A DNA stretch of 43,280 nucleotides from a virus, in IMG/VR virus record IMGVR_UViG_3300046694_000166, positions 1 to 43,280 of that record. One strand, given 5' to 3'. The stretch's first letter is position 1. Each line of letters opens with the position of its first letter. The position numbers and the translations under genes are program-made. Shown one piece after another: positions 1,342 through 43,280 of this stretch. The notes under the pieces are model-generated. The model was not told the origin of the DNA and made no database searches. It worked only from the letters and a program-made list of their open reading frames with translations.

Positions 1342-1589
1342 TGCCCAGCCATCGCCATCCCCGCAAGGTTCGCGGCTTCACCTGGTCCCGCGTGCCCGGC
1401 GCCGCCGGGAACATCACCTACCGCCTTTTCCGCCACGACATGCGCGGCGTTCTCCACTGCGCCATCGTGCGGTTCGATCCTGACAAGCAGGACCGCCGCG
1501 CGATGGCCGCGAAGCTCAAGAGCAAGCGTCACGACCTGCGCAACCAGGTCGACACCATCGACCTACAACTGCTTGGAGTCACCCAGTGA
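1341..1589 (+). CDS. Small basic protein downstream of DGR RT, unknown function
   Basis: An 82-aa protein rich in Arg, Lys and His with no domain I recognise. The ATG shares its first base with the RT stop codon (TGATG), and its own stop overlaps the GTG of the ParB-like gene, so it is tightly embedded in the operon. The C-terminal half (RRAMAAKLKSKRHDLRNQ) looks like a charged helix. Its basic character and position suggest possible nucleic-acid binding or a DGR accessory role, but that is inference from context only. It could equally belong with the ParB-domain gene. Confidence 0.7.
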   Translation: MPSHRHPRKVRGFTWSRVPGAAGNITYRLFRHDMRGVLHCAIVRFDPDKQDRRAMAAKLKSKRHDLRNQVDTIDLQLLGVTQ

Positions 1590-3460
1590 TCACACTCATC
1601 CCGCTTTCGAAGCTTGTCGCGTCGCCGCGCAATGTGCGCAAAACTGGCGGTCAAAACATCGACGACCTGGCCGGATCTATCCGCGCCCACGGACTGCTGC
1701 AGAACCTGACAGTGGCCGCGAAAGGCGGCAAGTACGAAGTCGTCGCCGGCGGCCGTCGCCTGCGCGCGTTGCAGCGCATCGAGAAAGAGGACGGCAAGCT
1801 TCCCGATGCGCTCAAGGACGGCATCCCCTGCATGTCGGTGCTGAGCGACGATGCACACGATGCCAGCCTGGCCGAGAACGTCGTGCGCGAGGCTATGCAC
1901 CCCGCCGACCAATTCGACGCGTTCCATGCCATGGCGGGGCGTGGCCACGGCGTATCGGCAATCGCCGCCGCATTCGGTTGTCCCGAGTCGGTGGTCAAGC
2001 AGCGCCTGAAGCTGGCCAAGGTGGCGCCAGCGCTGATCGAGGCCTATCGCAATGGCGACATGACGCTCGAAACGCTGCAGACCTTCAGCATCACCGACGA
2101 CCGCAAACAGCAGGAGCGGGTGTGGAAGGAGGTCGGGCACACCAACAAGGAGTACCAGGCGGAGAACGTGCGGCGCCGCCTGGTCCAGAGCGAGATCGAC
2201 TTCAACGACAGCGACGAAGCGCAATTCGTCGGCCTCGCGGCATACGAGGCCGCTGGCGGCTTCATCCGCCGCGACATGTTCACCAAAGCGATCTACCTCG
2301 ATCGCGGCCTGGTCGAAAAGCTGGTGACGGTGAAACTCGACGACATGAAGGCCCGGATGAAAGCCGAGGGCTGGGCCTGGGTCGAGGTGAAGCGTGACTA
2401 CGTGTCGATCTACAGCTACCAGCGCAAAAAAAGCACCAAACGCGAGGCCACGACACAAGAGACGGACGCGATCGCAGCCCTGCAGGCCGAACGTGCACCG
2501 CTCCAAGAGCGTATCAACGTCCTGCAGGCGATCGAGGACGAAGACCTGCAGGCGGCAACGCAGGACGAGTTCGACCAACTGGACGTGCAGGTCAACAACA
2601 TCGACAGCCGGATCGCGCTGATCAAGGATGGCATGGTCACCTTTTCGGCCAAGGCCATGGCGGCGTCTGGCGCGATCATCGAGCTGGCGCACAACGGCCT
2701 GCGGATCCACCGTGGCCTCGTAAAAGAGGCGGACGCCAAGCGCGCGGCCAAGGAAAAGCAGAAGGCCAAAGCCGGCACCACCACCGAAGCGCCCGAGTCG
2801 ACCGAACTTTCGAACACCATGGTCGAGCGGCTCACCGGCTACCGCACCGCTGCTATGCAGCTCGAGCTCGCCACGCGCGCCGATGTCGCCCTGGCGTTGC
2901 TCGCCTGGGAGCTTCTGCAGAGCACCTTCGGCTGCCACTGGTACCTCCACCTGGGCAGCATAAACGCCACGCCGTACCGCGGCGCCGATTTCCAGCGCCT
3001 GGGCGTGGCCATGGACTATGCGCCAATCGAAGATCTCTTTCAGATGGTCGAGGAGTGGCGCGGCCAGATCCCGGACGATGCCGGCGACGCCATGCGCTGG
3101 GTGTTCGACCTGCCGGCGGACGAACTGCAGAACCTCCTGGCCATCTGCACGGCATGCGCGTTCAACGGGACATTTGGCTCTGGCGCCATGCAGTCCCAGC
3201 GCAGCAAGCGCGATATGGTCGACATCCTCGTGGAACGCCTGCAGTTCGACATGGCCAAGCACTGGGCCCCGACCGTCGATAGCTTCCTCGGCGCCGTGCC
3301 GAAGGCCATCGCGATCGAGGCTGTCACCGAGGCCTGCGGCGCCGAGAACGCGAAGAAGCTGGGGCCGCTCAAGAAGGGCGACGCAGCCAAACTGGCCGAG
3401 GAGATGCTCGAGGATCGCGGTTGGCTGCCGGCGCCGCTGCGCGTGACCGTCGCGGCATAA
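1586..3460 (+). CDS. ParB/RepB/Spo0J-domain protein, 624 aa
   Basis: The N-terminal ~150 residues look like a ParB CTPase/partition domain: PRNVRK at 14-19, VVAGGRRLRAL at 52-62 (the GERR-type box), AENVVRE at 96-102 (the ENLQR-type box), then a helix-turn-helix (HGVSAIAAAFGCPESVVKQR). About 470 further residues follow, including a coiled-coil stretch near 290-350 and a Lys/Ala-rich segment near 385-400. Proteins of this long form are known from plasmids, integrative elements and phages. No parA partner is present, so plasmid-like segregation is unproven and a regulatory or DNA-loading role is possible. The GTG start overlaps the preceding stop (GTGA). It lies between the DGR and the integrase genes. 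Confidence 0.85.
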   Translation: MITLIPLSKLVASPRNVRKTGGQNIDDLAGSIRAHGLLQNLTVAAKGGKYEVVAGGRRLRALQRIEKEDGKLPDALKDGIPCMSVLSDDAHDASLAENVVREAMHPADQFDAFHAMAGRGHGVSAIAAAFGCPESVVKQRLKLAKVAPALIEAYRNGDMTLETLQTFSITDDRKQQERVWKEVGHTNKEYQAENVRRRLVQSEIDFNDSDEAQFVGLAAYEAAGGFIRRDMFTKAIYLDRGLVEKLVTVKLDDMKARMKAEGWAWVEVKRDYVSIYSYQRKKSTKREATTQETDAIAALQAERAPLQERINVLQAIEDEDLQAATQDEFDQLDVQVNNIDSRIALIKDGMVTFSAKAMAASGAIIELAHNGLRIHRGLVKEADAKRAAKEKQKAKAGTTTEAPESTELSNTMVERLTGYRTAAMQLELATRADVALALLAWELLQSTFGCHWYLHLGSINATPYRGADFQRLGVAMDYAPIEDLFQMVEEWRGQIPDDAGDAMRWVFDLPADELQNLLAICTACAFNGTFGSGAMQSQRSKRDMVDILVERLQFDMAKHWAPTVDSFLGAVPKAIAIEAVTEACGAENAKKLGPLKKGDAAKLAEEMLEDRGWLPAPLRVTVAA

Positions 3461-3500
3461 ATCGCCGATTCGGCCGCCCACCACAGGAGACGACGGCAGC

Positions 3501-3950
3501 ATGAGTTTGCCCTACGAAAACGCCACCAGCGGCAACAACGCGATCAATGACATCCAGAAGATGCTGCGCGGGTTCGGCTGCACGAAGTTCGCCACGGGCG
3601 AGGACTACGAAACCGGCGAGCTGTTCATCCAGTTCGAGCACCGCGGCCGCCAGGTGCAGCTCAAGGCCAGCGCCAAAGGCTACGCCGCGGCATGGCTCAA
3701 GGAGCATCCGTACGGCTCGCGGACGAAGGGAAGCCGCTCGGACCACGAGCAGCGCGCACTGAAGATTGGCAGCGTCGCGGTGTATTCGATCCTGCGCGAC
3801 TGGGTGAAGGGTCAGGTGACAGCGATCGAGATCGGCATGCTGACCTTTGAGGCCGCCTTCCTCGCCCACCTGATGCTTCCCACGGGCTTGTCAGTCATTG
3901 AGCACATCAACCGGCAGAAACTCCTGCCAGCACCGGAGTCGGTAGCATGA
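3501..3950 (+). CDS. Conserved phage-type protein, unknown function
   Basis: A 149-aa soluble protein with a good ribosome site (CAGGAGA, about 10 bases before ATG). Its stop overlaps the start of the DUF4224 gene (ATGA). I do not recognise the family. There is no signal peptide or membrane segment. Its position between the ParB-domain gene and the excisionase/integrase pair suggests an accessory early function. Confidence 0.75.
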   Translation: MSLPYENATSGNNAINDIQKMLRGFGCTKFATGEDYETGELFIQFEHRGRQVQLKASAKGYAAAWLKEHPYGSRTKGSRSDHEQRALKIGSVAVYSILRDWVKGQVTAIEIGMLTFEAAFLAHLMLPTGLSVIEHINRQKLLPAPESVA

Positions 3951-4156
3951 CCACCAACATTTGCCTCACCCGCGAGCAGCTGACCGAGCTGTGCCGGACC
4001 AGCCGCAAGGCCGGCCAGGTCGCCTTTCTGCGCCAGAACGGTATCCGCCACTATCTGGATGCCCATGGTTGGCCCGTCGTCACCCACGCGGCAGTTGAAG
4101 GCCAAGTTGAGCCGGCGCAGGCTATCAAGTCCTGGAAGCCGAACAAGGCCGCCTGA
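3947..4156 (+). CDS. DUF4224 small protein preceding integrase, possible excisionase
   Basis: A 69-aa protein resembling DUF4224: an N-terminal LTREQLTELCRTSRKAGQVAFLRQNGIRHYLDAHGWPVV core, with the typical pattern of a short winged-helix-like fold that recognises DNA. DUF4224 genes commonly sit directly upstream of tyrosine integrases in proteobacterial prophages, as here (stop at 4156, integrase ATG at 4159). A recombination-directionality role is inferred from that context; no biochemical assignment is possible from sequence. Confidence 0.75.
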   Translation: MTTNICLTREQLTELCRTSRKAGQVAFLRQNGIRHYLDAHGWPVVTHAAVEGQVEPAQAIKSWKPNKAA

Positions 4157-4158
4157 CC

Positions 4159-5184
4159 ATGGGACGCCGACCGAGCCGCCCAGATGCTGTACCCAATTTG
4201 CGGGTGCGCAAGAAGGGGAAGAAGGTTTTCTACTACTACGACCACGGCGGCAAGCCACGTCGGGAAGAAGCGCTCGGCAGTGACTATGGCCTGGCCATTA
4301 CACGCTGGGCCCAGATCCGGCGCGAGGGCACCGAGAAGCCCAAGGCCGTGGTGACCTTCCGGTATGTCGCGGATCTCTACCGCGCCGAGGTCATCCCGAC
4401 CAAGCGCCGCGGTACTCAGGCTGACAACGAGAAGTCGCTCAAGCAGTTGATCACCTTCTTCGACGATCCGCCGGGACCGTTCGAAGCGATCACGCCCCAG
4501 TTTGTGAAGCAGTTCCTGGAGTGGCGCGGCGAGTCAGCGAAGGTGCGCGCCAACCGTGACAAAGCGCTGCTGTCGCACATCTGGAACTGGGCACGCGAGA
4601 AGGGCTACACCGCGTTGCCGAACCCGTGCGCCGGCGTGAAGGGGTTCAAGGAGAGCGGCCGCGACGTCTATATCGAGGACGTCGACTACCAGGCCGTGTG
4701 GGACGTCGCCGCTGCGCCACTGCGCGATGCGATGGATCTCGCCTACCTCACAGCGCAGCGCGTGTCCGACACGCTCAGCATGGATGTGCGAGACATCCGC
4801 GGCGGGTTCCTACACGTCAAGCAAAGCAAGACCGGCGCGAAACGCCGCATCCAGATCATGGGCGAGCTGGAAGAGTTGCTCGCGCGAATCGCCGATCGCA
4901 AAGCCGGCTACAAGGTGCATGCCACGCGCCTGGTGGTGGGCGAGGATGGCCAGCCGTGGAGCTACGACCGATTGCGTCGCGCGTTCCGTGCCGCATGCAC
5001 GTCGGTTGGCATCGAGCCGGAAGCATTCCAGCTGCGCGACCTTCGCGCGAAGGCAGCCACCGACAAGGCGGACTCTGCCGGCGACATCCGGGAGGCGCAG
5101 AATCAGCTGGGCCACACGTCGGTGGTGATGACGGAGCAGTACACCCGGAACCGTCGTGGCGCGAAGGTCACGCCGACGCGTTGA
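4159..5184 (+). CDS. int: Tyrosine-family site-specific integrase
   Basis: A 341-aa phage integrase catalysing attP x attB recombination. An N-terminal arm-binding region (about 10-50) is followed by a SAM-like core-binding domain (about 65-165) and the catalytic domain. Catalytic residues visible are Arg201 (AQRVSD), Lys224 (KTGAKRR), Arg293-x-x-Arg296 (LRDLRAKAATD, with Arg in place of the usual His), His319 (LGHTS) and nucleophile Tyr328 (EQYTR). It is the last gene of the rightward operon and is followed within 250 bp by four copies of a 10-mer and a tRNA-Leu-like sequence, the expected attP neighbourhood. Confidence 0.95.
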   Translation: MGRRPSRPDAVPNLRVRKKGKKVFYYYDHGGKPRREEALGSDYGLAITRWAQIRREGTEKPKAVVTFRYVADLYRAEVIPTKRRGTQADNEKSLKQLITFFDDPPGPFEAITPQFVKQFLEWRGESAKVRANRDKALLSHIWNWAREKGYTALPNPCAGVKGFKESGRDVYIEDVDYQAVWDVAAAPLRDAMDLAYLTAQRVSDTLSMDVRDIRGGFLHVKQSKTGAKRRIQIMGELEELLARIADRKAGYKVHATRLVVGEDGQPWSYDRLRRAFRAACTSVGIEPEAFQLRDLRAKAATDKADSAGDIREAQNQLGHTSVVMTEQYTRNRRGAKVTPTR

Positions 5185-5187
5185 AAG

Positions 5188-5419: not shown

Positions 5420-5433
5420 TTCGAACGAAAGAG

Positions 5434-5456
5434 GCTGCCGAGAGGCGGCTTTTTTT
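5434..5456 (+). terminator. Rho-independent terminator after int
   Basis: Stem GCTGCC/GGCGGC with a GAGA loop and a run of seven T. It ends the rightward operon just before the convergent end of the late leftward operon. Confidence 0.85.
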
Positions 5457-5481
5457 GTGCCCTCTTTCTGGGCTGGAGCGC

Positions 5482-5790
5482 CTAAAGCTGCCGGGTCTCG
5501 TAGCGATAGAACTGGCAGTAGCCTGGATGCGGCTGATGCGGGAGGCTCAGGCCATGGAGGGTTGCCCATTTCTCGACCCGCTGAACGCCCTTTTCCCTGG
5601 ATGCAACTTTGTAATTCTTGACCCCGTCGGAGCTGGCGTTGGGGTACCAGAACACTCTCCATTCGCCCTCCTGAATGCAAAGGGTCGCGAACGGCCCGGT
5701 CGTGTGCGGCTCGATCAGCCGGGCGATATAGAGATCAAGGGGCTCATCGTTTAGCACGACGCGCTCCCATTCGATGGTTATTAGACTCAT
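5482..5790 (-). CDS. Hypothetical protein at end of late operon
   Basis: A 102-aa acidic/aromatic protein (MSLITIEWERVVLNDEPLDL start) with no family I recognise and no signal peptide or membrane segment. It is the last leftward gene and faces the integrase operon terminator. The ribosome site before the ATG is weak. Position after the tail-tip genes suggests a virion-associated or late accessory role. Confidence 0.65.
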   Translation of the reverse strand: MSLITIEWERVVLNDEPLDLYIARLIEPHTTGPFATLCIQEGEWRVFWYPNASSDGVKNYKVASREKGVQRVEKWATLHGLSLPHQPHPGYCQFYRYETRQL

Positions 5791-5838
5791 GCCGGCAGCG
5801 TACGCCGGCGCCGTCTCACACCATGAGCATGGCCTCGA

Positions 5839-6330
5839 TCAGGCCAGCAGGGCCCCGAGGTTGGATGCCGCCCCTACCTCTGCAACCGACGAGATCGCGT
5901 GCCGGATGCTCCAGTTGGCCAGGCTGGTATCCGACCAAGGAATCATCGGCTGAGTCACCTCCGTGCCGTTGGCGTCGATCGTTACCTGAGTGATCGGCTC
6001 GCCCAGCACGGCCAGCAGATGGCACTTCGTCAGCGCATCGATGCCATTGGTCGAGATCTCCGCCAGCGAGCTGAGGTGGTTGAACTCCACCACCACCTCC
6101 GAGCCGTTCGGGCACAGCTTGGTGCTGCCGTCCGCATTAATCAGGCGTCCGGACGCATAAAACACCAAGCCGGCGTTGTTCTCCTGCCAGGTGCGCTCGA
6201 CGTACACGGCAACGCAGTCTCCCGTATCGAGTGTGACCGCGACTTCGTCGGTGTAGAGACCGGGGTCGCTGATGGCAGTGGCGTCCGCTGCGCGCGGCGC
6301 CGGCTGGGGATTGGTGACGGTGTAGCCCAT
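5839..6330 (-). CDS. Hypothetical tail-associated protein
   Basis: A 163-aa protein following the tail-tip gene by eight bases, with GTGAGG upstream of the ATG. The sequence is beta-rich in character (alternating polar and hydrophobic residues, many Thr/Val) with no recognised motif. In siphovirus genomes this slot often holds a tail-tip accessory, fibre or decoration protein. That role is inferred from position only. Confidence 0.7.
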   Translation of the reverse strand: MGYTVTNPQPAPRAADATAISDPGLYTDEVAVTLDTGDCVAVYVERTWQENNAGLVFYASGRLINADGSTKLCPNGSEVVVEFNHLSSLAEISTNGIDALTKCHLLAVLGEPITQVTIDANGTEVTQPMIPWSDTSLANWSIRHAISSVAEVGAASNLGALLA

Positions 6331-6339
6331 GCTATTGCC

Positions 6340-35004: not shown

Positions 35005-35062
35005 ATCTTATGGCATCCCATAGACGAGCGTCAACGTCATCCCATAACGCGATTCCATAACC
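35005..35062. promoter_or_regulatory. cI-cro operator/promoter region
   Basis: Leftward promoter: TTGACG (35029-35034), 18-base spacer, TAAGAT (35005-35010). Operator 1 is the palindromic TATGGCATCCCATA at 35009-35022, overlapping the -10. Two related half-matches, both of form AACGyNATyCCATA, lie at 35033-35046 and 35046-35059, toward the repressor gene. The 14-mer operator recurs exactly at 36247-36260. Confidence 0.75.
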
Positions 35063-35605
35063 ATGTCGACCATGACGATAGGAGAAAGAATCAAGCAGGC
35101 CAGAAAGGCTCGGGACCTGAGCCGAGTGGAGCTTGCGCGCGCCACGGGTATCCCCTACCCGACGCTCGCCGGCATCGAGAACGGCGACCAAAGCGCCAGT
35201 ACTCGCCTGCACGTCATCGCCAGCGCGCTTAATGTGCGCGTTGAGTGGCTGGAAACCGGCAAAGGATGCCGCGACGCCTCGGAAGCCTCGCCGGATGCGA
35301 TCTCTCACGCCGTGAGATTGGACCCCCAGATGATTGCCGACACCGCTTGGGCACTGCGTACTGCCTACGAAGCCGTAGGTCGTGTGTTTGTCCTTGAGGA
35401 GGAGCCGGAACGCTTTTTGCAGATGTACTTGGCGCGCGCTGAGATCAGCGATCTGAGCACGCCCGACAACATGGCGAAATTAGTGCTCAAGGCATCCAGC
35501 GTGGCGAATTCAGAGGGGAAAGGCGTTGAAGAACGAGGCGGCACGGTGCCAGCTCCTGGCACTCATAAGAAGGACCTGGCCAGAGGAGCTCGCCGTAAAG
35601 GCTGA
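35063..35605 (+). CDS. CI-like XRE repressor
   Basis: 180 aa. The N-terminal XRE helix-turn-helix domain spans about 4-62 (IGERIKQARKARDLSRVELA, GIPYPTLAGIENGDQ, LNVRVEWLETGKG). The C-terminal ~115 residues show no Ser-Lys S24/LexA-type peptidase signature, so RecA-stimulated self-cleavage is not expected from sequence. It is divergent from cro across shared operators and so should maintain lysogeny. The ATG at 35063 has little leader; ATG 35072 is an alternative. Confidence 0.85.
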   Translation: MSTMTIGERIKQARKARDLSRVELARATGIPYPTLAGIENGDQSASTRLHVIASALNVRVEWLETGKGCRDASEASPDAISHAVRLDPQMIADTAWALRTAYEAVGRVFVLEEEPERFLQMYLARAEISDLSTPDNMAKLVLKASSVANSEGKGVEERGGTVPAPGTHKKDLARGARRKG

Positions 35606-35772: not shown

Positions 35773-36141
35773 ATGAAGCGTTTGTTTGCGGTCGCAGTCG
35801 TTGTCGTGTCATTGGCCGGCTGTGTCTCCGCCGGCACTAAGGTGGATCCTAACGTCGTCAGCAGCTTTCAGCCGGGCGTGACCACGCTCGACCAGGCCGA
35901 GGCGAAGCTGGGCACGCCCAACTCCGTAACAAAGCTGCCCGACGGCACCACCGTCATTGGCTATGCGTTTACGCACGCCCAAGCGAGCGGCTCCAGCTAC
36001 ATCCCGGTTGTCGGGGCTTTCGTCGGCCACTCCGACGCCAACACCGTCATCGCCACGCTGACCTTCGACAAGGGCGGCAAGTACGTGCAGTCCTCGACGA
36101 CGACGAGCCAGACCAAGGCCGGAATGTTCACCAGCCAGTAA
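35773..36141 (+). CDS. BamE/SmpA-OmlA-like lipoprotein
   Basis: 122 aa from ATG 35773 with AAGGGGAAG upstream. The signal peptide ends in lipobox SLAGC (MKRLFAVAVVVVSLAGCVSA), so it should be an outer-membrane or inner-membrane lipoprotein. The middle (FQPGVTTLDQAEAKLGTPNSV) is the SmpA/OmlA motif of BamE-like proteins. The gene lies beside the repressor with its own terminator, the usual place for lysogenic-conversion genes. Altering the envelope or blocking superinfection is a hypothesis. Confidence 0.82.
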   Translation: MKRLFAVAVVVVSLAGCVSAGTKVDPNVVSSFQPGVTTLDQAEAKLGTPNSVTKLPDGTTVIGYAFTHAQASGSSYIPVVGAFVGHSDANTVIATLTFDKGGKYVQSSTTTSQTKAGMFTSQ

Positions 36142-36167
36142 CTGGCGCGGCCAGTTCGACGAGCTCA

Positions 36168-36191
36168 AGCCCGCCCAGCGCGGGCTTTTTT
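36168..36191 (+). terminator. Terminator after lipoprotein gene
   Basis: Stem AGCCCGC/GCGGGCT with loop CCAGC, followed by six T. It separates the repressor/lipoprotein transcript from the early promoter that follows. Confidence 0.85.
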
Positions 36192-36221
36192 GTGCCAGCA
36201 GGATCTGCCGCAGAGAAATAT

Positions 36222-36262
36222 TATGGGATTCCATTGACAGCTTAATTATGGCATCCCATAAT
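36222..36262 (+). promoter_or_regulatory. Rightward early promoter with two operators (pL-like)
   Basis: TTGACA (36234-36239), 17-base spacer, CATAAT (36257-36262), close to the sigma-70 consensus. TATGGGATTCCATT at 36222-36235 overlaps the -35, and TATGGCATCCCATA at 36247-36260 overlaps the -10 and is identical to operator 1 at the switch. The switch regulators should therefore control the whole rightward operon, including the DGR. Confidence 0.82.
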
Positions 36263-36295: not shown

Positions 36296-36502
36296 ATGAG
36301 CGCGAGCTGGACGTCCGAACCGATCCGAATCAACGACGACACCTGCGTCGACGTGAGCGCCGACGAGCACGGCGTGGTGCTGGGCCAGCAGGGCGCAGCA
36401 TGGCTCGAAGACCTCCACCTCGAGCCGGAGCTGGCCATCGAACTGGCCGAAGCACTCACCACCGGTGCCGCGAAGTGCCTGGCCGCGCGGGGAAACGCAT
36501 GA
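36296..36502 (+). CDS. Small acidic early protein
   Basis: 68 aa from ATG 36296 with CAGGAG upstream (MSASWTSEPIRINDDTCVDV). It is acidic, probably alpha/beta, and the first gene of the repressor-controlled operon. No family is recognised. First early genes of phages often encode anti-host or anti-defence factors; nothing in the sequence proves that here. Confidence 0.7.
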   Translation: MSASWTSEPIRINDDTCVDVSADEHGVVLGQQGAAWLEDLHLEPELAIELAEALTTGAAKCLAARGNA

Positions 36503-36768
36503 GCGCCCATCCCGTATTCGTCCCCGCGCTGCGCGCTTTCGGTGGCGCCGCCTACGACCAGGTCGCGCACCTCGATCAGAAAGCCGTGATCGCTGTTCCG
36601 CGCATCGAAGTCGACCTGCCCAGCCATAACCCGGGTGATGCCGAGACCTGGCGCACGGCTGTCCTCACCGACGACCAGGTGCGCCTGGCGTACGAAACCT
36701 TGGCCAAGAGCTTCAGCGACGAGTTCGAAACGATCGCCACGAAGATCGCCACAGGTGAGCTCGCATGA
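36499..36768 (+). CDS. Small early protein, unknown
   Basis: 89 aa from ATG 36499, overlapping the previous stop (ATGA). Sequence MSAHPVFVPALRAFGGAAYD start, helical C-terminus (YETLAKSFSDEFETIATKIA). No known domain. Its stop overlaps the next gene's start. Confidence 0.7.
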   Translation: MSAHPVFVPALRAFGGAAYDQVAHLDQKAVIAVPRIEVDLPSHNPGDAETWRTAVLTDDQVRLAYETLAKSFSDEFETIATKIATGELA

Positions 36769-36878
36769 ACCGCCCCGACTTCAATGATCGCTGCGACCAG
36801 TCGCGCCTCCTCTGGGTCGCTATCACCGTCCTGTTCGCCGTCGGCTACGTCGCCGCTCTTCTAGGTGTGCGCCCATGA
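36765..36878 (+). CDS. 37-aa single-TM protein
   Basis: MNRPDFNDRCDQSRLLWVAI start with a transmembrane helix (LLWVAITVLFAVGYVAALLG). It overlaps both neighbours by four bases (ATGA), strong evidence that it is translated. Function unknown. Confidence 0.65.
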   Translation: MNRPDFNDRCDQSRLLWVAITVLFAVGYVAALLGVRP

Positions 36879-37108
36879 GCGTCTTCGCCGAGGTGGCAAT
36901 GATGACGCCGGCACAGCGCGAGCAGCTGATCGCCGATGCAAGCAACGAACGCCAGCGCGACATCGATCGCGCCCTGCGTGATCTCGAAAAGCGCCTGCGG
37001 ATACGCCGCATCGCTTCCCTTATGCCGGCCGAGCAGGCGGACCTCCCTCCGTCGCTTACCCCTGGGCACGCTTCGGCCGGCGCCTCTCACCAGGAGCAGA
37101 CGCCATGA
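36875..37108 (+). CDS. Small charged helical protein
   Basis: 77 aa. The central part (QLIADASNERQRDIDRALRD) is a charged helix, likely coiled coil, and the C-terminus is Pro/Ser/Gln-rich. It overlaps neighbours by ATGA on both sides. No family is recognised. Confidence 0.65.
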   Translation: MSVFAEVAMMTPAQREQLIADASNERQRDIDRALRDLEKRLRIRRIASLMPAEQADLPPSLTPGHASAGASHQEQTP

Positions 37109-37290
37109 AGCATCCCGCCTCGCTCGTCGTCCACACGCCGAAAGGCCCGGAGTCGTGCTGCGACAAGCACGCGGCTCAGCTCCGCGGCGCGATGTTCCTC
37201 CTCGGCGCATGCGTCTACACGGTGCCGGCTGCGGCCGACGCCCAGTGCGCCAACTGCGTCAACGAAGCGAAGAAAACGGAGGTTGCATGA
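37105..37290 (+). CDS. Small Cys-rich protein
   Basis: 61 aa with SCCDKH, GACVY and CANCVNEA, two Cys pairs that could bind zinc (the C-terminal CANC is typical of small zinc ribbons). It overlaps neighbours by four bases at both ends. Function unknown. Confidence 0.65.
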   Translation: MKHPASLVVHTPKGPESCCDKHAAQLRGAMFLLGACVYTVPAAADAQCANCVNEAKKTEVA

Positions 37291-37532
37291 AACCGCTGCT
37301 CTCGATCTTCCACACGCGCCGCCAGAGCTTCCACGGCTGCGATCAGCCCACGGAGGCGGAACGGATGGCGCGCTACAGCGCGCGCCACGCCGAAGAGATG
37401 CAGCAGCGCGAGAACGCCGGTGCCGCCGCTCCCCGTGTGCGCCTGGTCGACGGCCGTCCGGTGCTCATCGCACTCGACGGCAAGCCCAACGCGCTGCCGA
37501 AAGACCAGCAGAAGTCCGAAGACCAGCAGTAA
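37287..37532 (+). CDS. Small protein, unknown
   Basis: 81 aa from ATG 37287 (MKPLLSIFHTRRQSFHGCDQ), with a charged helix (TEAERMARYSARHAEEMQQR), a short beta-like RVRLVDGRPVLIALDGK and a polar tail. It is directly upstream of the first DGR target gene. No family is recognised. Confidence 0.65.
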   Translation: MKPLLSIFHTRRQSFHGCDQPTEAERMARYSARHAEEMQQRENAGAAAPRVRLVDGRPVLIALDGKPNALPKDQQKSEDQQ

Positions 37533-37557: not shown

Positions 37558-37977
37558 ATGTCCCGTTTCACGAAGCTCGACGCCGCCCTGCAGCCACTTC
37601 CCGCCGATGCCACCGGCCATGTCGCCGTGTTGGACAACCAGCTCAACCTTATCTGGAGCGTCGACAACGTCGGCGGCAAGCGCCTGAATTGGGCTGAAGC
37701 GAAGGAAGCCGTGGCCACGCTCGACCTGGGCGGCAAGACCGACTGGCGCCTGCCCACCGTCGAGGAACTCTTTCTGCTCGCCGATCGCACGCGCTTCGAG
37801 CCCGCGATCGACACCGACGCCTTCCCGGCTTGTGAGTCGAGCTTCTACTGGAGCGGCACTGCGGATGCGTCGTCTTCGGACTGCGCCTGGGGCGTCGGTT
37901 TCCACGGCGGCAGTTCCGGCTGGAGCGACGTCGACGACGAGGCGTTCGTGCGTGCGGTGCGCGCGCCCAGTCAGTAA
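37558..37977 (+). CDS. DGR variable protein 1 (DUF1566/C-type-lectin-like)
   Basis: 139 aa from ATG 37558 with AAGGAGAA upstream. The body matches DUF1566/Lcl C-terminal-type domains: LNWAEAKEAV, KTDWRLPTVEEL, FPACESSFYWSG. The last ~37 residues are encoded by VR1 and end RAVRAPSQ. Such folds hold diversified residues on a ligand-binding face. No signal peptide, lipobox or transmembrane helix is visible, so a cytoplasmic or virion-borne role is more likely than self-export. It is transcribed with early recombination genes, away from and opposite to the tail genes. The ligand is unknown. Confidence 0.9.
   Translation: MSRFTKLDAALQPLPADATGHVAVLDNQLNLIWSVDNVGGKRLNWAEAKEAVATLDLGGKTDWRLPTVEELFLLADRTRFEPAIDTDAFPACESSFYWSGTADASSSDCAWGVGFHGGSSGWSDVDDEAFVRAVRAPSQ
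37867..37971 (+). repeat. DGR variable repeat 1 (VR1)
   Basis: Aligned to TR 49-153 with no gaps. Fifteen differences are found, all at TR adenines: 14 A to G and one A to C (TR position 85). The 81 non-adenine positions are unchanged. VR1 encodes the C-terminal end of the 139-aa DUF1566-like protein. Homology extends a little upstream, to TR 46. Confidence 0.95.
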
Positions 37978-37989
37978 TTGGCCTTTTGG
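37972..37989 (+). promoter_or_regulatory. Conserved block after VR1 (IMH 3' part)
   Basis: The 18 bases following VR1, starting CAGTAATTGG, are identical to those following VR2 at 42683-42700 and absent from the TR. The block includes the stop codon and runs 12 bases into non-coding sequence, so protein constraint does not explain it. It probably forms the target-side part of the initiation-of-mutagenic-homology element. I see no strong GC-rich hairpin like the one downstream of VR in phage BPP-1. Confidence 0.65.
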
Positions 37990-38033
37990 GAATGCCTTTC
38001 AACGTGCCGGCATCGCCGGAGAAGGAATCATCG

Positions 38034-39185
38034 ATGTCCACTGAAATCACCGAATACAGCCAGACCGAGCAAGCCCTCGCCGAGCTGCGTAACAAGTACG
38101 CGAACGCGGTCTTCGATGTGTCGACCACGAAGGGCATGACGCTGGCCAGGGAAGCGCGCGCCGAGGTTCGCGGCTACCGCGTCGCCCTCGAAAAGAAGCG
38201 CGTCGAGATCAAGGCCCCTGCGCTGGAGCGCTGCCGCCTGATCGACACCGAGGCGAAGCGCATCACGGCCGCGCTCGAGGCGTTGGAAGGTCCGATCGAC
38301 GAGATCATCAAGGCCGAAGAGCACCGCAAAGAAGAGGAACGGCTGGCCAGGCTCGAGGCCGAGCGCCAGCGCGTGCAGGCCATTACCGCAAAGATTGACA
38401 CCATCCGCGCGCTCCCCGCGTCGCTCGTTGGCAAGCCCTCCGTCGTGATCAAGGGTCAGCTGGCCAAACTCCGCGACCAGGTGCCAGATACCGGCGAGTT
38501 CGCCGAGCTGCTGCCCACGGCGCTGGACGCACACACCGCGACCATCGCGCGCATCGAGCAGCAGCTCCAGGCGCAGCTCGACCAGGAAGCTGAGCAGGCT
38601 CGCATCAAGGCCGAACGCGAAGAGCTCGATCGCCTGCGCGAAGCCGACCGCCTGCGCCGCGAAGAGGATGAGCGCAAGGCCGCTGCCGAGCGCGCCGAAC
38701 AGGAACGCCTGGATCGTGAACGCAGGGAGCGTGAAGATGCCGAGCACCGCGCCCGTCTTGAACGGGAGGCTCGCGAGCGTGCCGAGCGCGAGACCGAAGA
38801 GCGTCGCCAACGTGAAACCGCAGAAGCAGACGCGCGCCGCATCCGCGAAGAGGAAGAGCAGGCTCGCCGCGAGGAACAGGCACGTCAGCGCGCCGCGGAA
38901 GAGCAACGCCTGCAGGCCGAAAGGGAGCGTCTTGCCGAAGAGCAGCGCCAGTTCGAAGCGCGCCAGGCGGAGCAGCGTAAGAAGGAAGCGGCAGCTCGCG
39001 CCGCGGCTGAAGCGGAACGACTCGCAGGCCTCACGTTGCGCGATGCGACGCTGGCGGCTGTCCGGTGGTTTCACCACAACGGGCACGAGCTCGAACAGGT
39101 ATGCAAAGACCTCGAGGCGGCCCTCGCCAACGATGCACCTGCCGTCACCACGACGCGCACCCGTAAGAAGGCGGCCAGCGCATGA
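38034..39185 (+). CDS. Coiled-coil protein upstream of exonuclease
   Basis: 383 aa from ATG 38034 with GGAGAAGGAA upstream. The first ~80 residues have a helical domain (VFDVSTTKGMTLAREARAEV) like the DUF1351-type proteins that accompany phage YqaJ/RecT pairs. Residues ~190-340 are an extremely charged Arg/Glu coiled coil. The C-terminus contains TLRDATLAAVRWFHHNGHE. It overlaps the exonuclease start by four bases, so it probably assists recombination or DNA handling. Confidence 0.8.
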   Translation: MSTEITEYSQTEQALAELRNKYANAVFDVSTTKGMTLAREARAEVRGYRVALEKKRVEIKAPALERCRLIDTEAKRITAALEALEGPIDEIIKAEEHRKEEERLARLEAERQRVQAITAKIDTIRALPASLVGKPSVVIKGQLAKLRDQVPDTGEFAELLPTALDAHTATIARIEQQLQAQLDQEAEQARIKAEREELDRLREADRLRREEDERKAAAERAEQERLDRERREREDAEHRARLEREARERAERETEERRQRETAEADARRIREEEEQARREEQARQRAAEEQRLQAERERLAEEQRQFEARQAEQRKKEAAARAAAEAERLAGLTLRDATLAAVRWFHHNGHELEQVCKDLEAALANDAPAVTTTRTRKKAASA

Positions 39186-40069
39186 ACGCTCTGCTCGAAC
39201 CCCTGGTCAACACGCGCCACTACATCGGCGGCGGCAACATCGCCGGCATCCTCGGCCTGTCGCCCTTTAAGACGCCGCTCGACGAATACCTGACGATCAT
39301 CGGCGACCAGGAACAGCCGTCGCAGGACCAGCTCGATTTCTTCGCTCGGCGCAAAGCGCTGGAGCCGTTCGCCATCGAACTGTTCCAGCGCGAGACCGGC
39401 AAGACGATCGTCCGTGCCAACGAACGCTACACCGACCGCGAGCACCTGTTCATCAAGGCGGAGATTGACGCCGAGACCGTCGACGAGAACGTCGAGATCA
39501 AGAGCGTGCACCCCCTGGCAGCGAGCCACTGGGGTGACCCTGGCGGCGATTCGATTCCGACGTATGTGACCGCCCAGGCAATGCACGGCCTGATGGTCAA
39601 CGGTCGGCGCGTTTGCTACCCGGTCGCCATGATTGGCTTTGATGACTTTCGCGTGTACCGGATCGAGCGTGACGAGGAAACGATCCGCGGCATCCGCGAA
39701 CACGCTGTGTCGTTCTGGCGCAACCACGTCGAACGCATGGCGCCGCCCGACGCAGTGACCAGCGAGGACGTGAAGCGTCTGTTCAAGCGCGACAGCGGAG
39801 CGAGCAAGGAGGCCACAACCGAGATCGCCGCGGCCGTCGACGAACTGCGCCTTTGCAAGGCTGCTGAGAAGCGCGGCGAGGCCCTGGCCGAACAGATCAA
39901 GGTCTTCATGCTCGACGCCACAACGTTGACCGCCGGCGGTAAGTCGGTGGCCACCTGGAAGTCGCAGAACTCCACGCGCTTCGATCAGAAGGCCTTCGGC
40001 GCCGAACACCCCGCCCTTCTCGAACTCTTCAAGCACACGACCGAAACCCGTGTATTTAGGCTGAAGTGA
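39182..40069 (+). CDS. YqaJ-type viral recombinase exonuclease
   Basis: A 295-aa nuclease of the YqaJ family, a lambda exonuclease-like fold. Visible are IAGILGLSPFKTPLDEYL at the N-terminus, RKALEPFAIELFQRETG, and the catalytic pattern KAEIDAETVDENVEIKSVHP (Asp and Glu-x-Lys). It digests one strand of double-stranded ends to feed the RecT/Bet protein encoded two genes downstream. Confidence 0.92.
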   Translation: MNALLEPLVNTRHYIGGGNIAGILGLSPFKTPLDEYLTIIGDQEQPSQDQLDFFARRKALEPFAIELFQRETGKTIVRANERYTDREHLFIKAEIDAETVDENVEIKSVHPLAASHWGDPGGDSIPTYVTAQAMHGLMVNGRRVCYPVAMIGFDDFRVYRIERDEETIRGIREHAVSFWRNHVERMAPPDAVTSEDVKRLFKRDSGASKEATTEIAAAVDELRLCKAAEKRGEALAEQIKVFMLDATTLTAGGKSVATWKSQNSTRFDQKAFGAEHPALLELFKHTTETRVFRLK

Positions 40070-40413
40070 TGAAGGCCTGTCGCATTCCTGACTGCGATGC
40101 GCCGTCAAAGACGCGTGGTCTCTGCAATCGCCATTACCTCAAGTGGTGGATGCACGGTGATCCGCTTGCGGGTCGCGATCTGGCACCACGGGGAAGCGGC
40201 AGCCTCCATTCCCATGGATATCGCCGTGCCGGTGAAGTGCTCGTCCATCGACAGGTTGCCGCACAGAAGCTCGGACGCCCTCTGACCCGCCGAGAGGTCG
40301 TTCACCACATCGACGGCAACAAGCTCAACAACCATCCCGACAACCTGCGCGTGTTCGCCTCACAGGCCGAGCACGCCGCTCATCACAACGCAGAACGTCG
40401 CTGCCTCAAGTGA
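40069..40413 (+). CDS. HNH endonuclease (free-standing homing type)
   Basis: 114 aa. An N-terminal zinc site (CRIPDCDAPSKTRGLCNRHY) is followed by the HNH core VVHHIDGNKLNNHPDNLRVF and a closing AEHAAHH. The ATG shares a base with the exonuclease stop. Such small HNH genes are mobile in phages and are often inserted between functionally linked genes, as here between exonuclease and annealase. Confidence 0.88.
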   Translation: MKACRIPDCDAPSKTRGLCNRHYLKWWMHGDPLAGRDLAPRGSGSLHSHGYRRAGEVLVHRQVAAQKLGRPLTRREVVHHIDGNKLNNHPDNLRVFASQAEHAAHHNAERRCLK

Positions 40414-40430
40414 CCCACCCAGGAGACACC

Positions 40431-41474
40431 ATGAGCACTACCCAACTCAAAGCCGCAGCCACCAGCGGCACGCAGGTCGCTAAGGCGGACAAGCCGAAAA
40501 CCATCGCCGGCCTGCTCACCGATCCGTCCATCAAAAACCAGATGGCGCTGGCGCTCCCGAAGCACATGACGGCTGACCGCCTGGCACGCATCGCGCTCAC
40601 TGAGGTGCGAAAGAATCCGAAGCTGGCCCAATGCGATCAGACGTCGTTCCTTGGCGCGATCATGCAGTGCGCCGCACTCGGCTTGGAACCCGGTGGCGCG
40701 CTTGGCCACGTCTATATGCTGCCCTTCGACAAGCGCAAGAAGGTGGGCCAGCAGTGGCAGGTGGTGGCCACCGAAGTGCAGCTGATCGTCGGTTATCGCG
40801 GCATGCTCGATCTCGCACGCCGCTCTGGCCAGATCCTCAGCCTCGAAGCGCGCGCCGTGTACGAGCGTGACTTCTTCAAGGTCACCCTCGGTCTCGAATC
40901 GAACATCACCCACGAGCCCGATTGGCAGGCTGCTGACCGCGGCAAGGTCACCTTCGTGTACGCGGTGGCCAAGCTGCGCGATGGCGGTATCCAGTTCGAG
41001 GTTATGAGTGCGGCCGAGATCCACCGCATCCGAGATGAGAGCCAGGGATACAAGTCGGCCCTCGAAAGCGCGAAGAAGTACAACAAGGAGGCCAGCTCAC
41101 CGTGGATCAGCAACTTCGATGAGATGGCGAAGAAGACCGTCATCCGTCGCTTGTTCAAATACCTCCCGGTGTCGATCGAGATCCAGCGTGCCGTCGGTCT
41201 CGACGAGCAGGCAGACCTTGGCTTGACGCAGGACACCCCGATCACCATCGAAGGCGACTACTCCACCGTTACGCCCGAGATTGGCCACGCCCACGACGAG
41301 CACGGCGGCGATGCCGGCGGTATCACCGCGCAAGACATCCACGACGCGCTCGCAGCGGCGTCGACGCGGAGCGAGCTCGACCAGGCGGCCGACCTGATCA
41401 GCCTGCTGCCCGAAGACCAGCGCAAGCCGCTCCTCGACCAGTGGAACGCGCGCTGCAGCGAGATCACCGAATAG
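40431..41474 (+). CDS. RecT/Bet single-strand annealing protein
   Basis: A 347-aa RecT family protein from ATG 40431 with AGGAGA upstream. Characteristic segments are LTEVRKNPKLAQCDQTSFLG, MQCAALGLEPGGALGHVYMLPF, VQLIVGYRGMLDLARRSGQI and WISNFDEMAKKTVIRRLFKYLP. It anneals single strands produced by the YqaJ exonuclease. Residues after ~275 form a variable acidic tail. Confidence 0.95.
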   Translation: MSTTQLKAAATSGTQVAKADKPKTIAGLLTDPSIKNQMALALPKHMTADRLARIALTEVRKNPKLAQCDQTSFLGAIMQCAALGLEPGGALGHVYMLPFDKRKKVGQQWQVVATEVQLIVGYRGMLDLARRSGQILSLEARAVYERDFFKVTLGLESNITHEPDWQAADRGKVTFVYAVAKLRDGGIQFEVMSAAEIHRIRDESQGYKSALESAKKYNKEASSPWISNFDEMAKKTVIRRLFKYLPVSIEIQRAVGLDEQADLGLTQDTPITIEGDYSTVTPEIGHAHDEHGGDAGGITAQDIHDALAAASTRSELDQAADLISLLPEDQRKPLLDQWNARCSEITE

Positions 41475-41572
41475 CCCAACGCTGGGCACAAGCCGCTGCT
41501 CTGCAGCCCGCGAGTAGTGGGCCATCAGCGCCGGAGGCACCCGGCACCTTCTTCCACCAGGAGACACACACG

Positions 41573-42106
41573 ATGTTCAACCTCGAGAACCATCCCGTCG
41601 ATATCAAGAGCCACACCGCGCGCAAGGAATTCCACGGCGATCGTCTGGTGCTGGCCAGCTCGCTGAGCTGCGAAACCATCTGCGCCAACACGGTGCTCGA
41701 CGAGTTCGACCACGGTCTGCGGCCGCTGCTGTATCGCAACGCCAGCTCCGACGAGGCACCGCAGGCCGAGATTCCGCTCGAAGTGACGGACGGCCTGACG
41801 GCGCGCCGCCTGCCGCACGTCAAGCCGCTGGTGCTGGATCAGAAGTTCCCCGGCTACAAGCTGACCATGCCGTCGACCATTAAGCAGCACGACGTGATCG
41901 AAATCGAGAAGGCCGAGCTCTCCAAGCTCGTGTTCGAGGCACTCGAGGGCGGCAGCGTGCGCATCTCTTTCAGCCTCTCTTTCAAGGTTGGTTGGCAGAA
42001 CTCCGGAAAGCTCAATCACCTCATCCAGGAAACCGCGGACATGACCCTCACGCCGCCCGGCGTCGAGGAAGAAGACCCGCAGATGGAACTCGCAGCGACC
42101 GCGTAA
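41573..42106 (+). CDS. Conserved unknown protein after RecT, possible ssDNA-related
   Basis: 177 aa from ATG 41573 with CAGGAGA upstream. The sequence (SHTARKEFHGDRLVLASSLS, KAELSKLVFEALEGGSVRI) suggests a beta-rich protein. It follows the recombination genes, where single-strand-binding-type proteins are frequent, but I see no OB-fold signature. The 98-bp interval before it (41475-41572) holds no gene I can support. Confidence 0.75.
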   Translation: MFNLENHPVDIKSHTARKEFHGDRLVLASSLSCETICANTVLDEFDHGLRPLLYRNASSDEAPQAEIPLEVTDGLTARRLPHVKPLVLDQKFPGYKLTMPSTIKQHDVIEIEKAELSKLVFEALEGGSVRISFSLSFKVGWQNSGKLNHLIQETADMTLTPPGVEEEDPQMELAATA

Positions 42107-42184
42107 CCACACGGCCAGCGCCTTCGCACGAGGGCGTTGTCCGAGTGGCAACGAAGCTGCCACCGCTAACCCAAGGAGAACCCT

Positions 42185-42688
42185 GTGCTGCCGTCCCTCA
42201 ACGTGAAGAACCTACACGTCCACCTGTATATGCCGGCGCTTCCGTCCGTCGCGGTGCCCGCCGACCTGGCCGAACTCAAGAGCGCTGTGGCCGCGAACCA
42301 GGCGACCGACCACTTTATCAAGCGCAACGACGGAGCGACGGTGCTCGACACGACGACCGGTCTGGAGTGGTCGGCCGACGCCATCGCGACCAACGCCATG
42401 ACTTGGGACAACGCCAAGCAGGCAGTGGTAAACGCCAACGTCGCGGGTCACAACGACTGGCGCCTGCCCACCGTCCAGGAGCTGCTCACGCTGGTGGACT
42501 ACGAGCGTCGTGATCCCGCTATCAACACGGATCTCTTCACCTGCAAGTCCAGCTACTACTGGTCATCGACTCCCTGCGCGTCGTCTTCGGGCTACGCCTG
42601 GGGCGTCTATTTCTACTACGGCGATTCCGGCTGGTGCGGCGTCGACTACTGGGCGTTCGTGCGTGCGGTGCGCGCGCCCAGTCAGTAA
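42185..42688 (+). CDS. DGR variable protein 2 (DUF1566/C-type-lectin-like)
   Basis: 167 aa from GTG 42185 with AAGGAGAA upstream. An N-terminal ~45-residue extension (VKNLHVHLYMPALP, then a short helix ADLAELKSAVAANQA) precedes a DUF1566 domain: TTGLEWSADAIATNAMTWDN, GHNDWRLPTVQELLTLVDYE, CKSSYYWSSTPC. VR2 encodes the last ~36 residues, ending RAVRAPSQ. Diversified positions are rich in Tyr, Gly, Asp, Cys and Trp, suitable for binding. No secretion signal is visible. It sits 25 bases upstream of avd. Confidence 0.92.
   Translation: MLPSLNVKNLHVHLYMPALPSVAVPADLAELKSAVAANQATDHFIKRNDGATVLDTTTGLEWSADAIATNAMTWDNAKQAVVNANVAGHNDWRLPTVQELLTLVDYERRDPAINTDLFTCKSSYYWSSTPCASSSGYAWGVYFYYGDSGWCGVDYWAFVRAVRAPSQ
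42578..42682 (+). repeat. DGR variable repeat 2 (VR2)
   Basis: Aligned to TR 49-153 with no gaps. Sixteen differences are found, all at TR adenines: 10 A to G and 6 A to T. Asn codons of the TR have become Tyr, Cys, Gly, Asp and Trp (Lys) codons. VR2 encodes the C-terminus of the 167-aa DUF1566-like protein directly upstream of avd. Confidence 0.95.
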
Positions 42689-42700
42689 TTGGCCTTTTGG
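42683..42700 (+). promoter_or_regulatory. Conserved block after VR2 (IMH 3' part)
   Basis: Identical over 18 bases to 37972-37989 and divergent immediately afterwards. It marks the second DGR target site and includes the stop codon of the variable protein. Confidence 0.65.
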
Positions 42701-42713
42701 ATAAGAGCACCCT

Positions 42714-43148
42714 ATGAGCTACGCCCTCCCACCCATTGTGAAGACAGCAGAACGCCTGCTCTTTGAGATCGAGCAGGCGGTCCGTTGTTTCGCGCGATAT
42801 CACAAGTACAGCACGGGCTCGACGCTGCGTGAGCAGGCGATGAAGATCGCCCAGCTCACACATCGAGCCTGGCGTGATCGTGCCCGTCAGGCGCAATGGT
42901 TGGAGGGCTTGGCATCGGCCATCGACGATCTTCGCATCACCATGCAGTTAGGCAGCCGTCTTCAGGCGTTCCGCAGCTTTAGTCAATTCGAGCAGTTGGC
43001 TCGCACATTGTCTGAGCTCGGACGACAGGTAGGCGGCTGGCGCAAGCAGCAATTCCCCAAGGGCCAGAATGACCAGCGCTCTTCCGCTGGCCAGCGCGCC
43101 CAGACACTGAGTACCCGCAACGCCTCGACGTATGAGGCCAATCCATGA
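42714..43148 (+). CDS. avd: DGR accessory variability determinant (Avd, four-helix bundle)
   Basis: A 144-aa basic, all-helical protein between the VR2 gene and the RT. It has the four-helix-bundle pattern of Avd/23S-intervening-sequence-like proteins (FEIEQAVRCFARYHKYSTGS, FRSFSQFEQLARTLSELGRQ, GGWRKQ). Avd forms a pentamer that binds the RT and template RNA and is needed for mutagenic retrohoming in phage BPP-1. The Ser/Gln/Asn-rich C-terminal tail is likely disordered. The TGA overlaps the RT ATG. Confidence 0.9.
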   Translation: MSYALPPIVKTAERLLFEIEQAVRCFARYHKYSTGSTLREQAMKIAQLTHRAWRDRARQAQWLEGLASAIDDLRITMQLGSRLQAFRSFSQFEQLARTLSELGRQVGGWRKQQFPKGQNDQRSSAGQRAQTLSTRNASTYEANP

Positions 43149-43280
43149 CGACGCTGCGCTACCACAACGGCTGTGCAGCAGGGTCGCAAGTGTGCGGGGA
43201 TGCGTCGTCTTCGGACTACGCCTGGAACGTCAATTTCAACAACGGCAATTCCGACTGGAACAACGTCAACAACAAGGCGT
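43145..43280 (+). CDS. 5' end of the DGR reverse transcriptase ORF, running off the window end
   Basis: ATG at 43145 overlaps the TGA of avd (ATGA, 43145-43148), the arrangement expected for translational coupling. The frame is open to the end of the window and continues, through the identical sequence at 1-127, into the reverse transcriptase. The first three codons (43145-43153) lie only here. This segment includes most of the duplicated template repeat. Confidence 0.8.
   Translation, partial: MTTLRYHNGCAAGSQVCGDASSSDYAWNVNFNNGNSDWNNVNNKA
43154..43280. repeat. 127-bp end overlap identical to 1-127 (circular contig)
   Basis: The last 127 bases equal the first 127. The reading frame of the reverse transcriptase and the avd-RT coupling are continuous across the join. 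A 127-base overlap is a common de Bruijn graph k-mer size, so this is best read as the closing overlap of a circular assembly and not as a biological terminal repeat. The unique genome length is 43,153 bp. Confidence 0.9.

What the first reader, a model, noticed from the sequence alone, without database searches (positions are those of the whole stretch)
37558..43280. A DGR with two non-structural targets inside the phage early recombination operon
TR, two VRs, avd and an RT with DGR motifs are all present (seen). Both diversified genes lie on the + strand among small early genes, YqaJ/RecT, ParB and integrase, while all tail genes are on the other strand in a late operon. In BPP-1 the diversified protein is a tail fibre. 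Here the targets are 139 and 167 aa, lack visible export signals, and would be made early under repressor control. They might bind variable host or rival-phage factors inside the cell, or be early-made virion additions; the role is inference.
Basis: partly seen in the sequence, partly recalled or inferred. Interest (0 to 1): 0.92.

Follow-up and report, generated by a model that had tools for sequence, protein, structure and literature searches.

The report
Early-gene diversity retroelement in temperate phages
This temperate phage, like many relatives, carries a mutation machine (a DGR) that rewrites two small lectin-like proteins encoded in its repressor-controlled early genes, not its tail; they probably act inside the infected cell, a use of DGRs not yet tested.

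Summary
The DGR is real and complete. The record is circular (127-bp terminal repeat); the TR and the RT gene cross the junction. Two VRs differ from the TR at 15/17 and 16/17 mismatches opposite A. Both targets are small stand-alone Lcl_C/DUF1566 proteins (139 and 167 aa) without signal peptides. They lie on the strand opposite the virion genes, in one tight operon with YqaJ, RecT, avd, RT, ParB and integrase. That operon starts at an 11/12 sigma-70 promoter overlapped by two operator-like palindromes, whose only other copies in 43 kb lie between the cro-like and repressor genes (a lambda OL/OR layout). The layout is not unique to this window. It recurs in prophages of Lysobacteraceae and in cultured Pseudomonas, Burkholderia and Shewanella phages. 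Their RTs split from those of tail-targeting DGRs at one well-supported branch. Near-identical relatives differ in both targets almost only at TR adenines (87 of 89 differences), so this lineage is active in nature. New variant of a known kind: the DGR is classical, and Burkholderia phage Magia was published with two short targets. I found no paper describing the early-operon lineage.

The parts
35008..35060 (.). Operator-like palindromes (consensus TTATGGNATNCCATAA; 35008-35023 and 35045-35060) between the cro-like gene (-) and the repressor gene (+): OR-like
   Evidence: Only 4 sites in the window, 0.16 expected
35063..35605 (+). HTH repressor (CI position)
   Evidence: phrog_4 transcriptional repressor 6e-16
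35773..36141 (+). Small lipoprotein gene in the repressor transcription unit
   Evidence: Lipobox in sequence; phrog_3135, unknown function
36167..36187 (+). Intrinsic terminator (8-bp stem, 6 GC, TTTT) that separates the repressor unit from the early operon
36221..36262 (+). Early (PL-like) promoter TTGACA-17-CATAAT (36234-36262) overlapped by two operator-like palindromes (36221-36236, 36246-36261): OL-like
36296..37532 (+). Small early genes with 4-base overlaps, start of the early operon
37558..37977 (+). DGR target A, 139 aa, Lcl_C/DUF1566 domain
   Evidence: PF07603 3e-28; AF2 model pLDDT 72, best PDB match Legionella Lcl C-terminal domain 8q4e, prob 0.99
37861..37975 (+). VR1
   Evidence: 15 TR-A mismatches, 2 others
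37970..37989 (+). VR-end cis element GTCAGTAATTGGCCTTTTGG (IMH-like)
   Evidence: Only 2 copies in the window, one per target; conserved in relatives
38034..41474 (+). DUF1351 (38034-39185), YqaJ exonuclease (39182-40069), HNH (40069-40413), RecT (40431-41474)
41573..42106 (+). 177-aa protein, no family match
42185..42688 (+). DGR target B, 167 aa, N-terminal extension plus Lcl_C domain
   Evidence: PF07603 1.7e-31
42578..42686 (+). VR2
   Evidence: 16 TR-A mismatches, 1 other
42681..42700 (+). VR-end cis element, second copy
42714..43148 (+). avd
   Evidence: phrog_3206 2.4e-15; bAvd 6.7e-08, below Pfam's cut-off
43..157 (+). TR (first part repeated at 43196-43280); ends GTGAGT where the VRs have GTCAGT
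1..1341 (+). DGR reverse transcriptase; coding starts at ATG 43145 and reads through the TR in frame (449 aa in all)
1586..5184 (+). ParB-like protein (1586-3460), two small genes, tyrosine integrase (4159-5184): end of the arm

Best explanation
It is a complete DGR of a distinct phage lineage whose targets are early, repressor-controlled proteins. Mechanism: on infection or induction, release of the repressor from the OL-like operators fires the promoter at 36234-36262. The operon makes target A, the recombination proteins, target B, Avd and RT. RT with Avd copies the TR part of this transcript into cDNA with random bases opposite A. The cDNA replaces the VR at the 3' end of either target, up to the GTCAGT...TTGGCCTTTTGG element. 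The products are small C-type-lectin-fold proteins with a hypervariable C-terminal face and no export signal, so they are made in the cytoplasm before virion proteins. Most likely they bind variable partners inside the cell: host defence or physiology factors, or proteins of rival phages. Shown by sequence: DGR anatomy, operon, operator layout, conservation of the layout, natural diversification of both targets in relatives. Inferred: timing, cytoplasmic site, partner class.
For: DGR anatomy. Virion genes on the other strand; the nearest tail gene is about 9 kb away on the circle. The late strand already has a J-like tail-tip protein of 1496 aa without a VR. Operon and OL/OR-like sites, with the same layout in relatives G150 and G240; in G240 target A is the first gene after the OL-like site. 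Layout conserved in 14 relatives and 7 cultured phages. Contigs picked only by the VR-end motif: 16 of 18 scorable have RT and virion markers on opposite strands; the other two are a Mu-like phage with the DGR just after its transposition genes and a one-strand phage with the targets next to RdgC. The RT tree separates 21 early-arm from 11 tail-type DGRs, support 100/99. Early-arm targets are mostly 118-237 aa without signal peptides; cellular relatives L017-L019 have them. Natural diversification: Haboob vs phPA-G 25 of 25, L098 vs L128 32 of 32, L121 vs L134 30 of 32 differences at TR-A.
Against: No transcript or proteome data. Early position does not exclude incorporation in virions. C-type-lectin DGR targets of known function bind surface ligands outside the cell. 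No binding partner is known. SSAP/exonuclease neighbours are not conserved, so they are probably not part of the mechanism. Promoter and operators are consensus calls; doubled operators were found in 3 of 9 arms tested.
Confidence: 0.55

Rival explanations
1. The targets are receptor-binding or decorating virion proteins that happen to be made early and are added to the tail during assembly, so the DGR serves host range as in BPP-1.
For: Phage DGR targets with a tested role are tail proteins; PMC8144416 reports viral targets of clades 1, 4 and 6 mostly as tail proteins. Lcl_C is a C-type-lectin fold. No signal peptide would be needed. The Magia authors also suggest host range as one possible outcome (PMC7883833).
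Against: Targets are consistently in the early region across unrelated virion modules: siphophage-like, the myophage Magia and a Mu-like phage. They are small and stand-alone, two or more per phage, while tail-type DGRs have one large target. The window's tail-tip protein has no VR.
Confidence: 0.25
2. The targets are lysogen-expressed cell-surface or released adhesins (lysogenic conversion), exported by a non-classical route or set free at lysis, and help the host stick or exclude phages.
For: The repressor-integrase arm is where lysogenic-conversion genes lie. Cellular DGR targets of the DUF1566 type are lipoproteins or secreted; L017-L019 have signal peptides.
Against: No export signal in phage targets. 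In the window a terminator and a repressor-type promoter separate them from the repressor unit, so they should be off in the lysogen.
Confidence: 0.12
3. The DGR shares an operon with an exonuclease and SSAP because these proteins carry out homing: RecT (or Erf, Bet) anneals mutagenised cDNA to the VR at the replication fork.
For: RecT lies between the two targets in the window, Erf in G259, RecT with YqaJ in G323/L116; RecT or Bet lies in the same arm in Magia and Haboob.
Against: G001-G007 and G010 have neither RecT nor Erf, and YqaJ is in only 3 of 39 records.
Confidence: 0.15
4. The cassette is a decayed or rearranged tail DGR with no current function at this place.
For: Two targets could be duplicates left by rearrangement.
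Against: RT, avd, TR and both target frames are intact. Outside TR-A the VRs match the TR almost perfectly (1-2 mismatches) although the targets share only 49% identity overall. Relatives show ongoing diversification.
Confidence: 0.02

Closest known systems
Burkholderia phage Magia DGR (MT701587 / NC_070954; PMC7883833)
   Same: Repressor-integrase arm with a lectin-fold 'possible DGR target', exonuclease, RecT, a second lectin-fold target, avd, RT, excisionase, integrase. The authors name genes 47 and 57 as potential targets.
   Different: RT about 40% identical; RT domain starts after the TR; targets of another C-lectin subfamily. The announcement does not discuss the early position and suggests adaptation or host range.
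Pseudomonas phages Haboob, VB_PaD_phPA-G, Cruim01, LPPA56, SC_8_H2H8_2017 and Shewanella phage vB_Sb_QDWS
   Same: Two small targets, avd, TR and RT on the strand opposite the virion genes where these are annotated.
   Different: Same deep RT branch but a separate sub-clade; targets annotated only as hypothetical proteins.
Bordetella phage BPP-1 DGR (mtd-avd-TR-brt)
   Same: Same mechanism and order target-avd-TR-RT; BPP-1 also has a cI-to-integrase arm with exonuclease and ssDNA-annealing genes.
   Different: BPP-1's single target is the tail protein Mtd at the end of the late operon; its RT is on the other side of the tree. The early 'VR2' in bbp36 is a 24-bp tandem repeat, not a DGR VR.
Multi-target DUF1566 DGR of Stenotrophomonas sp. 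SKA14 (PMC6642488)
   Same: Several DUF1566 targets in a DGR of the same bacterial family; likely the same lineage (inference).
   Different: Described without phage context, operon or timing.
Legionella Lcl C-terminal domain (PDB 8q4e) and cellular DUF1566 DGR targets
   Same: Same domain family and fold.
   Different: Cellular DGR relatives L017-L019 carry N-terminal signal peptides; phage targets do not.

Membership tests
Diversity-generating retroelement (DGR) | DGR-type RT with the [LIV]GxxxSQ motif | tested here: met
   GLPIGN-LSSQ and FVDD in the translation; phrog_1423 1.4e-101
Diversity-generating retroelement (DGR) | TR/VR pair with mismatches almost only opposite TR adenines | tested here: met
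   15/17 and 16/17
Diversity-generating retroelement (DGR) | avd accessory gene next to the TR | tested here: met
   phrog_3206 2.4e-15; bAvd 6.7e-08, under Pfam's own cut-off
Diversity-generating retroelement (DGR) | VR at the C-terminus of a C-type-lectin-fold protein, with an IMH-type VR end that differs from the TR | tested here: met
   PF07603; fold match 8q4e; GTCAGT vs GTGAGT, conserved in relatives
Diversity-generating retroelement (DGR) | Observed mutagenic homing in vivo | not testable with these tools
   Indirect only: near-identical relatives differ in VRs at TR-A; none for this phage itself
BPP-1-type (tail-targeting) phage DGR | Target is a tail protein in the late operon | tested here: not met
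   Targets on the strand opposite all tail/head genes, about 9 kb or more from the tail tip
BPP-1-type (tail-targeting) phage DGR | RT groups with RTs of tail-targeting DGRs | tested here: not met
   Split by one branch, 100/99
Lambda-like repressible early operon | Shared operators at the cro/cI region and at the early promoter of the recombination-integration arm | tested here: met
   4 sites in 43 kb at just these two places
Lambda-like repressible early operon | Early transcription, repressed in the lysogen | not testable with these tools
   No expression data
Roux et al. 2021 DGR clade 3 (mixed viral/cellular, Proteobacteria) | Placement in their RT tree | not tested
   Their tree was not at hand; mixture of phage and cellular relatives is suggestive only

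The most novel reading that the evidence does not exclude
Early-operon DGRs are a phage-encoded, continuously re-randomised repertoire of cytoplasmic binding proteins, used against variable host defence proteins or rival phages: the first DGR lineage whose targets act inside the cell in phage-host conflict.
Probability: 0.38. Interest if true: 0.95.

Novelty: new variant of a known kind. Interest (0 to 1): 0.77.

Why it matters
Phage DGRs are taught as tail-fibre diversifiers for host range. A whole lineage whose paired targets lie in repressor-controlled early operons, and which is visibly active in nature, means hypermutation may serve some step after DNA entry. The question is directly testable, because cultured P. 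aeruginosa and B. cenocepacia phages carry it. If the targets are cytoplasmic binders, they would be a natural, evolvable source of small binding proteins and a new counter-defence or inter-phage weapon.

Tried and rejected
VR2 target against INPHARED phages by tblastn: no match at 1e-5, so relatives were reached through the RT and the VR-end motif. Target-B protein search in viral contigs: no confirmed relatives. AF2 of target B failed (pLDDT 45) and was not used. BPP-1's annotated early-arm 'VR2' (bbp36) looked like a precedent but is a 24-bp tandem repeat: rejected. RecT/Erf/YqaJ/RdgC as necessary DGR partners: rejected, absent from most relatives. The window's operator motif in other genomes: no copies; de novo search found OL/OR-like pairs in G150 and G240 but nothing above shuffles in six other arms. 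Rfam: no match. TR inside the RT reading frame as a novelty: toned down, since the RTs of VP58.5, ACA1 and phiARM81mr also read through their TRs. The 10 paper searches found no description of early-operon DGR targets beyond the Magia note; subscription papers are not held, so this is not proof of absence.
Full report
WHAT IS THERE. The window is a circular virus record: its first and last 127 bases are identical (G000). On the circle the order on the + strand is: repressor (35063-35605), small lipoprotein (35773-36141), terminator (36167-36187), promoter (36234-36262), small genes, target A (37558-37977), DUF1351, YqaJ, HNH, RecT, a 177-aa protein, target B (42185-42688), avd (42714-43148), TR, RT (ATG 43145 to 1341), a small gene, ParB-like (1586-3460), two small genes, integrase (4159-5184). 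From 36499 to 5184 the gaps between genes are under 100 bases and many genes overlap by 4. On the - strand lie a cro-like gene, a CII-like gene, a P-like helicase loader, endolysin, terminase, portal, tape measure, tail assembly and a 1496-aa J-like tail-tip protein.

THE DGR. VR1 (37861-37975) and VR2 (42578-42686) differ from the TR (43-157) at 15 and 16 adenines and at 2 and 1 other positions (p = 1.7e-8 and 7.8e-10 against the TR's A content). One of the other differences is constant: the VR end reads GTCAGT where the TR reads GTGAGT. It is followed in both VRs by AATTGGCCTTTTGG. This end is conserved in the Lysobacteraceae-type relatives and occurs exactly twice in the window; it is the likely homing boundary (IMH). 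Outside TR-A positions the VRs are nearly identical to the TR, although the two targets are only 49% identical overall, which points to recent homing.

THE TARGETS. Both are small Lcl_C (PF07603) proteins. The AF2 model of target A (pLDDT 72, VR hairpin poorly resolved) matches the Legionella Lcl C-terminal domain best (prob 0.99, E 0.013), and the sequence profile finds the same PDB entry. Target B's model failed. Neither has a signal peptide. On the same RT branch, three cellular DGRs (L017-L019) have targets that begin with clear signal peptides or a lipobox, while phage targets do not.

EARLY AND REPRESSOR-CONTROLLED. The promoter at 36234-36262 matches 11 of 12 consensus bases. The palindrome TTATGGNATNCCATAA occurs four times in 43 kb (0.16 expected): twice between the cro-like and repressor genes, twice over this promoter. 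That is the OR/OL arrangement of lambda-like phages. The same doubling is seen with other palindromes in G150 and G240; in G240 target A is the first gene behind the OL-like site. In six other arms tested nothing exceeded shuffled controls. Timing itself was not measured.

NOT AN ISOLATED CASE. RT relatives in viral contigs and bacterial genomes, including 11 of 299 genomes of the family of the Arenimonas prophage, show 1-4 Lcl_C targets just upstream of avd-TR-RT, on the strand of the repressor and integrase, with terminase, portal, capsid and tape-measure genes on the other strand where these could be identified. Seven more distant cultured phages have the same plan. A scan chosen only by the VR-end motif brought 48 stretches of viral contigs. 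In 16 of the 18 contigs where RT and a virion marker could both be scored they lie on opposite strands. The two others are a Mu-like phage with everything on one strand and the DGR just after its transposition genes, and a one-strand phage with the targets next to RdgC. In 39 records searched, the Lcl_C matches lie on the RT strand in the DGR region and none was seen in a tail module. The RT tree puts 21 early-arm DGRs and 11 tail-type DGRs on two sides of one branch (100/99). Early-arm loci of cultured phages have two or more VRs (7 of 7), tail-type loci one (11 of 11, within the stretches fetched).

ACTIVE IN NATURE. Haboob and phPA-G, isolated in Denmark and Portugal, have identical TRs; their two VR pairs differ at 13 and 12 TR-A positions and at none of the others. 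L098 and L128 (99.8% identical over TR and RT) differ at 13 and 19 TR-A positions and nowhere else; L121 and L134 (99.4%) at 15 and 15, with one other each. Together 87 of 89 differences are at TR-A (p about 1e-39 or less). No such pair was found for the window's own phage.

HOW IT MOST LIKELY WORKS. Loss of repression fires the early operon; RT and Avd copy the TR with errors at A; cDNA replaces the VR of either target; small C-lectin proteins with new faces accumulate in the cytoplasm before virion assembly. I judge an intracellular binding role (host or rival-phage factors) most likely, at about 0.55 for the whole chain. A virion role (0.25) is the main rival. RecT-assisted homing is attractive where SSAPs lie in the same arm (window, G259, G323, Magia, Haboob) but most relatives lack them.

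COMPARED WITH WHAT IS KNOWN. It is a DGR by every feature tested. It is not a BPP-1-type tail DGR. The closest published case is Magia, whose authors listed two short potential targets; a Stenotrophomonas DGR with several DUF1566 targets was reported without phage context. The global survey PMC8144416 describes viral targets of three of its clades as mostly tail proteins and leaves others unassigned. I found no paper on an early-operon lineage. In hankyphage, silencing a CI-like repressor induced DGR activity, which shows that repressor control of a DGR is testable (PMC12135933).

LIMITS. Labels 'early' and 'late' rest on strand and neighbourhood; in some contigs (G006, G008, G240, LPPA56) virion genes were not firmly identified. 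RT relatedness and layout are confounded, so counts of phages are not independent events.

Noticed in passing
43145-43280 and 1-157: The RT gene starts at the avd stop (ATGA) and is read through the TR in frame, with a leader MT[KT]xRY..C.AGSQV.G(D) in many relatives; the TR part scores as Lcl_C in the RT frame of most relatives. The RT may carry a vestigial target at its N-terminus.
   Followed up: partly
1586-3460: A ParB-like protein of 624 aa (phrog_7783) lies beside the DGR here and, upstream of the targets, in G002, G004 and G005; function unknown.
   Followed up: partly
35773-36141: A small lipoprotein follows the repressor before the terminator; G150 has a lipoprotein in the same slot and L009 a 38% homologue. 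Candidate superinfection-exclusion gene of the lysogen.
   Followed up: no
40069-40413: HNH endonuclease between YqaJ and RecT; a possible homing insertion in the recombination operon.
   Followed up: no
L146 (G310) 1659-8932: Mu-like phage with transposase and transposition protein followed by two Lcl_C targets, avd and RT: early-region DGR in a transposable phage.
   Followed up: partly
L081 33229-33558 (BPP-1): BPP-1's annotated 'variable region 2' in bbp36, in the cI-integrase arm, is a 24-bp tandem repeat (13.8 copies), not a DGR VR.
   Followed up: yes
3501-3950: 149-aa protein of unknown function (phrog_17260) is 80% identical downstream of the RT in G240 and 60% in G007: unusually conserved for this arm.
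   Followed up: no
L020 2859-6902: Contig of an uncultured bacterium with two RT-like stretches on opposite strands, 30% and 33% identical to this RT.
   Followed up: no
41573-42106: 177-aa protein between RecT and target B with no Pfam or PHROG match.
   Followed up: no
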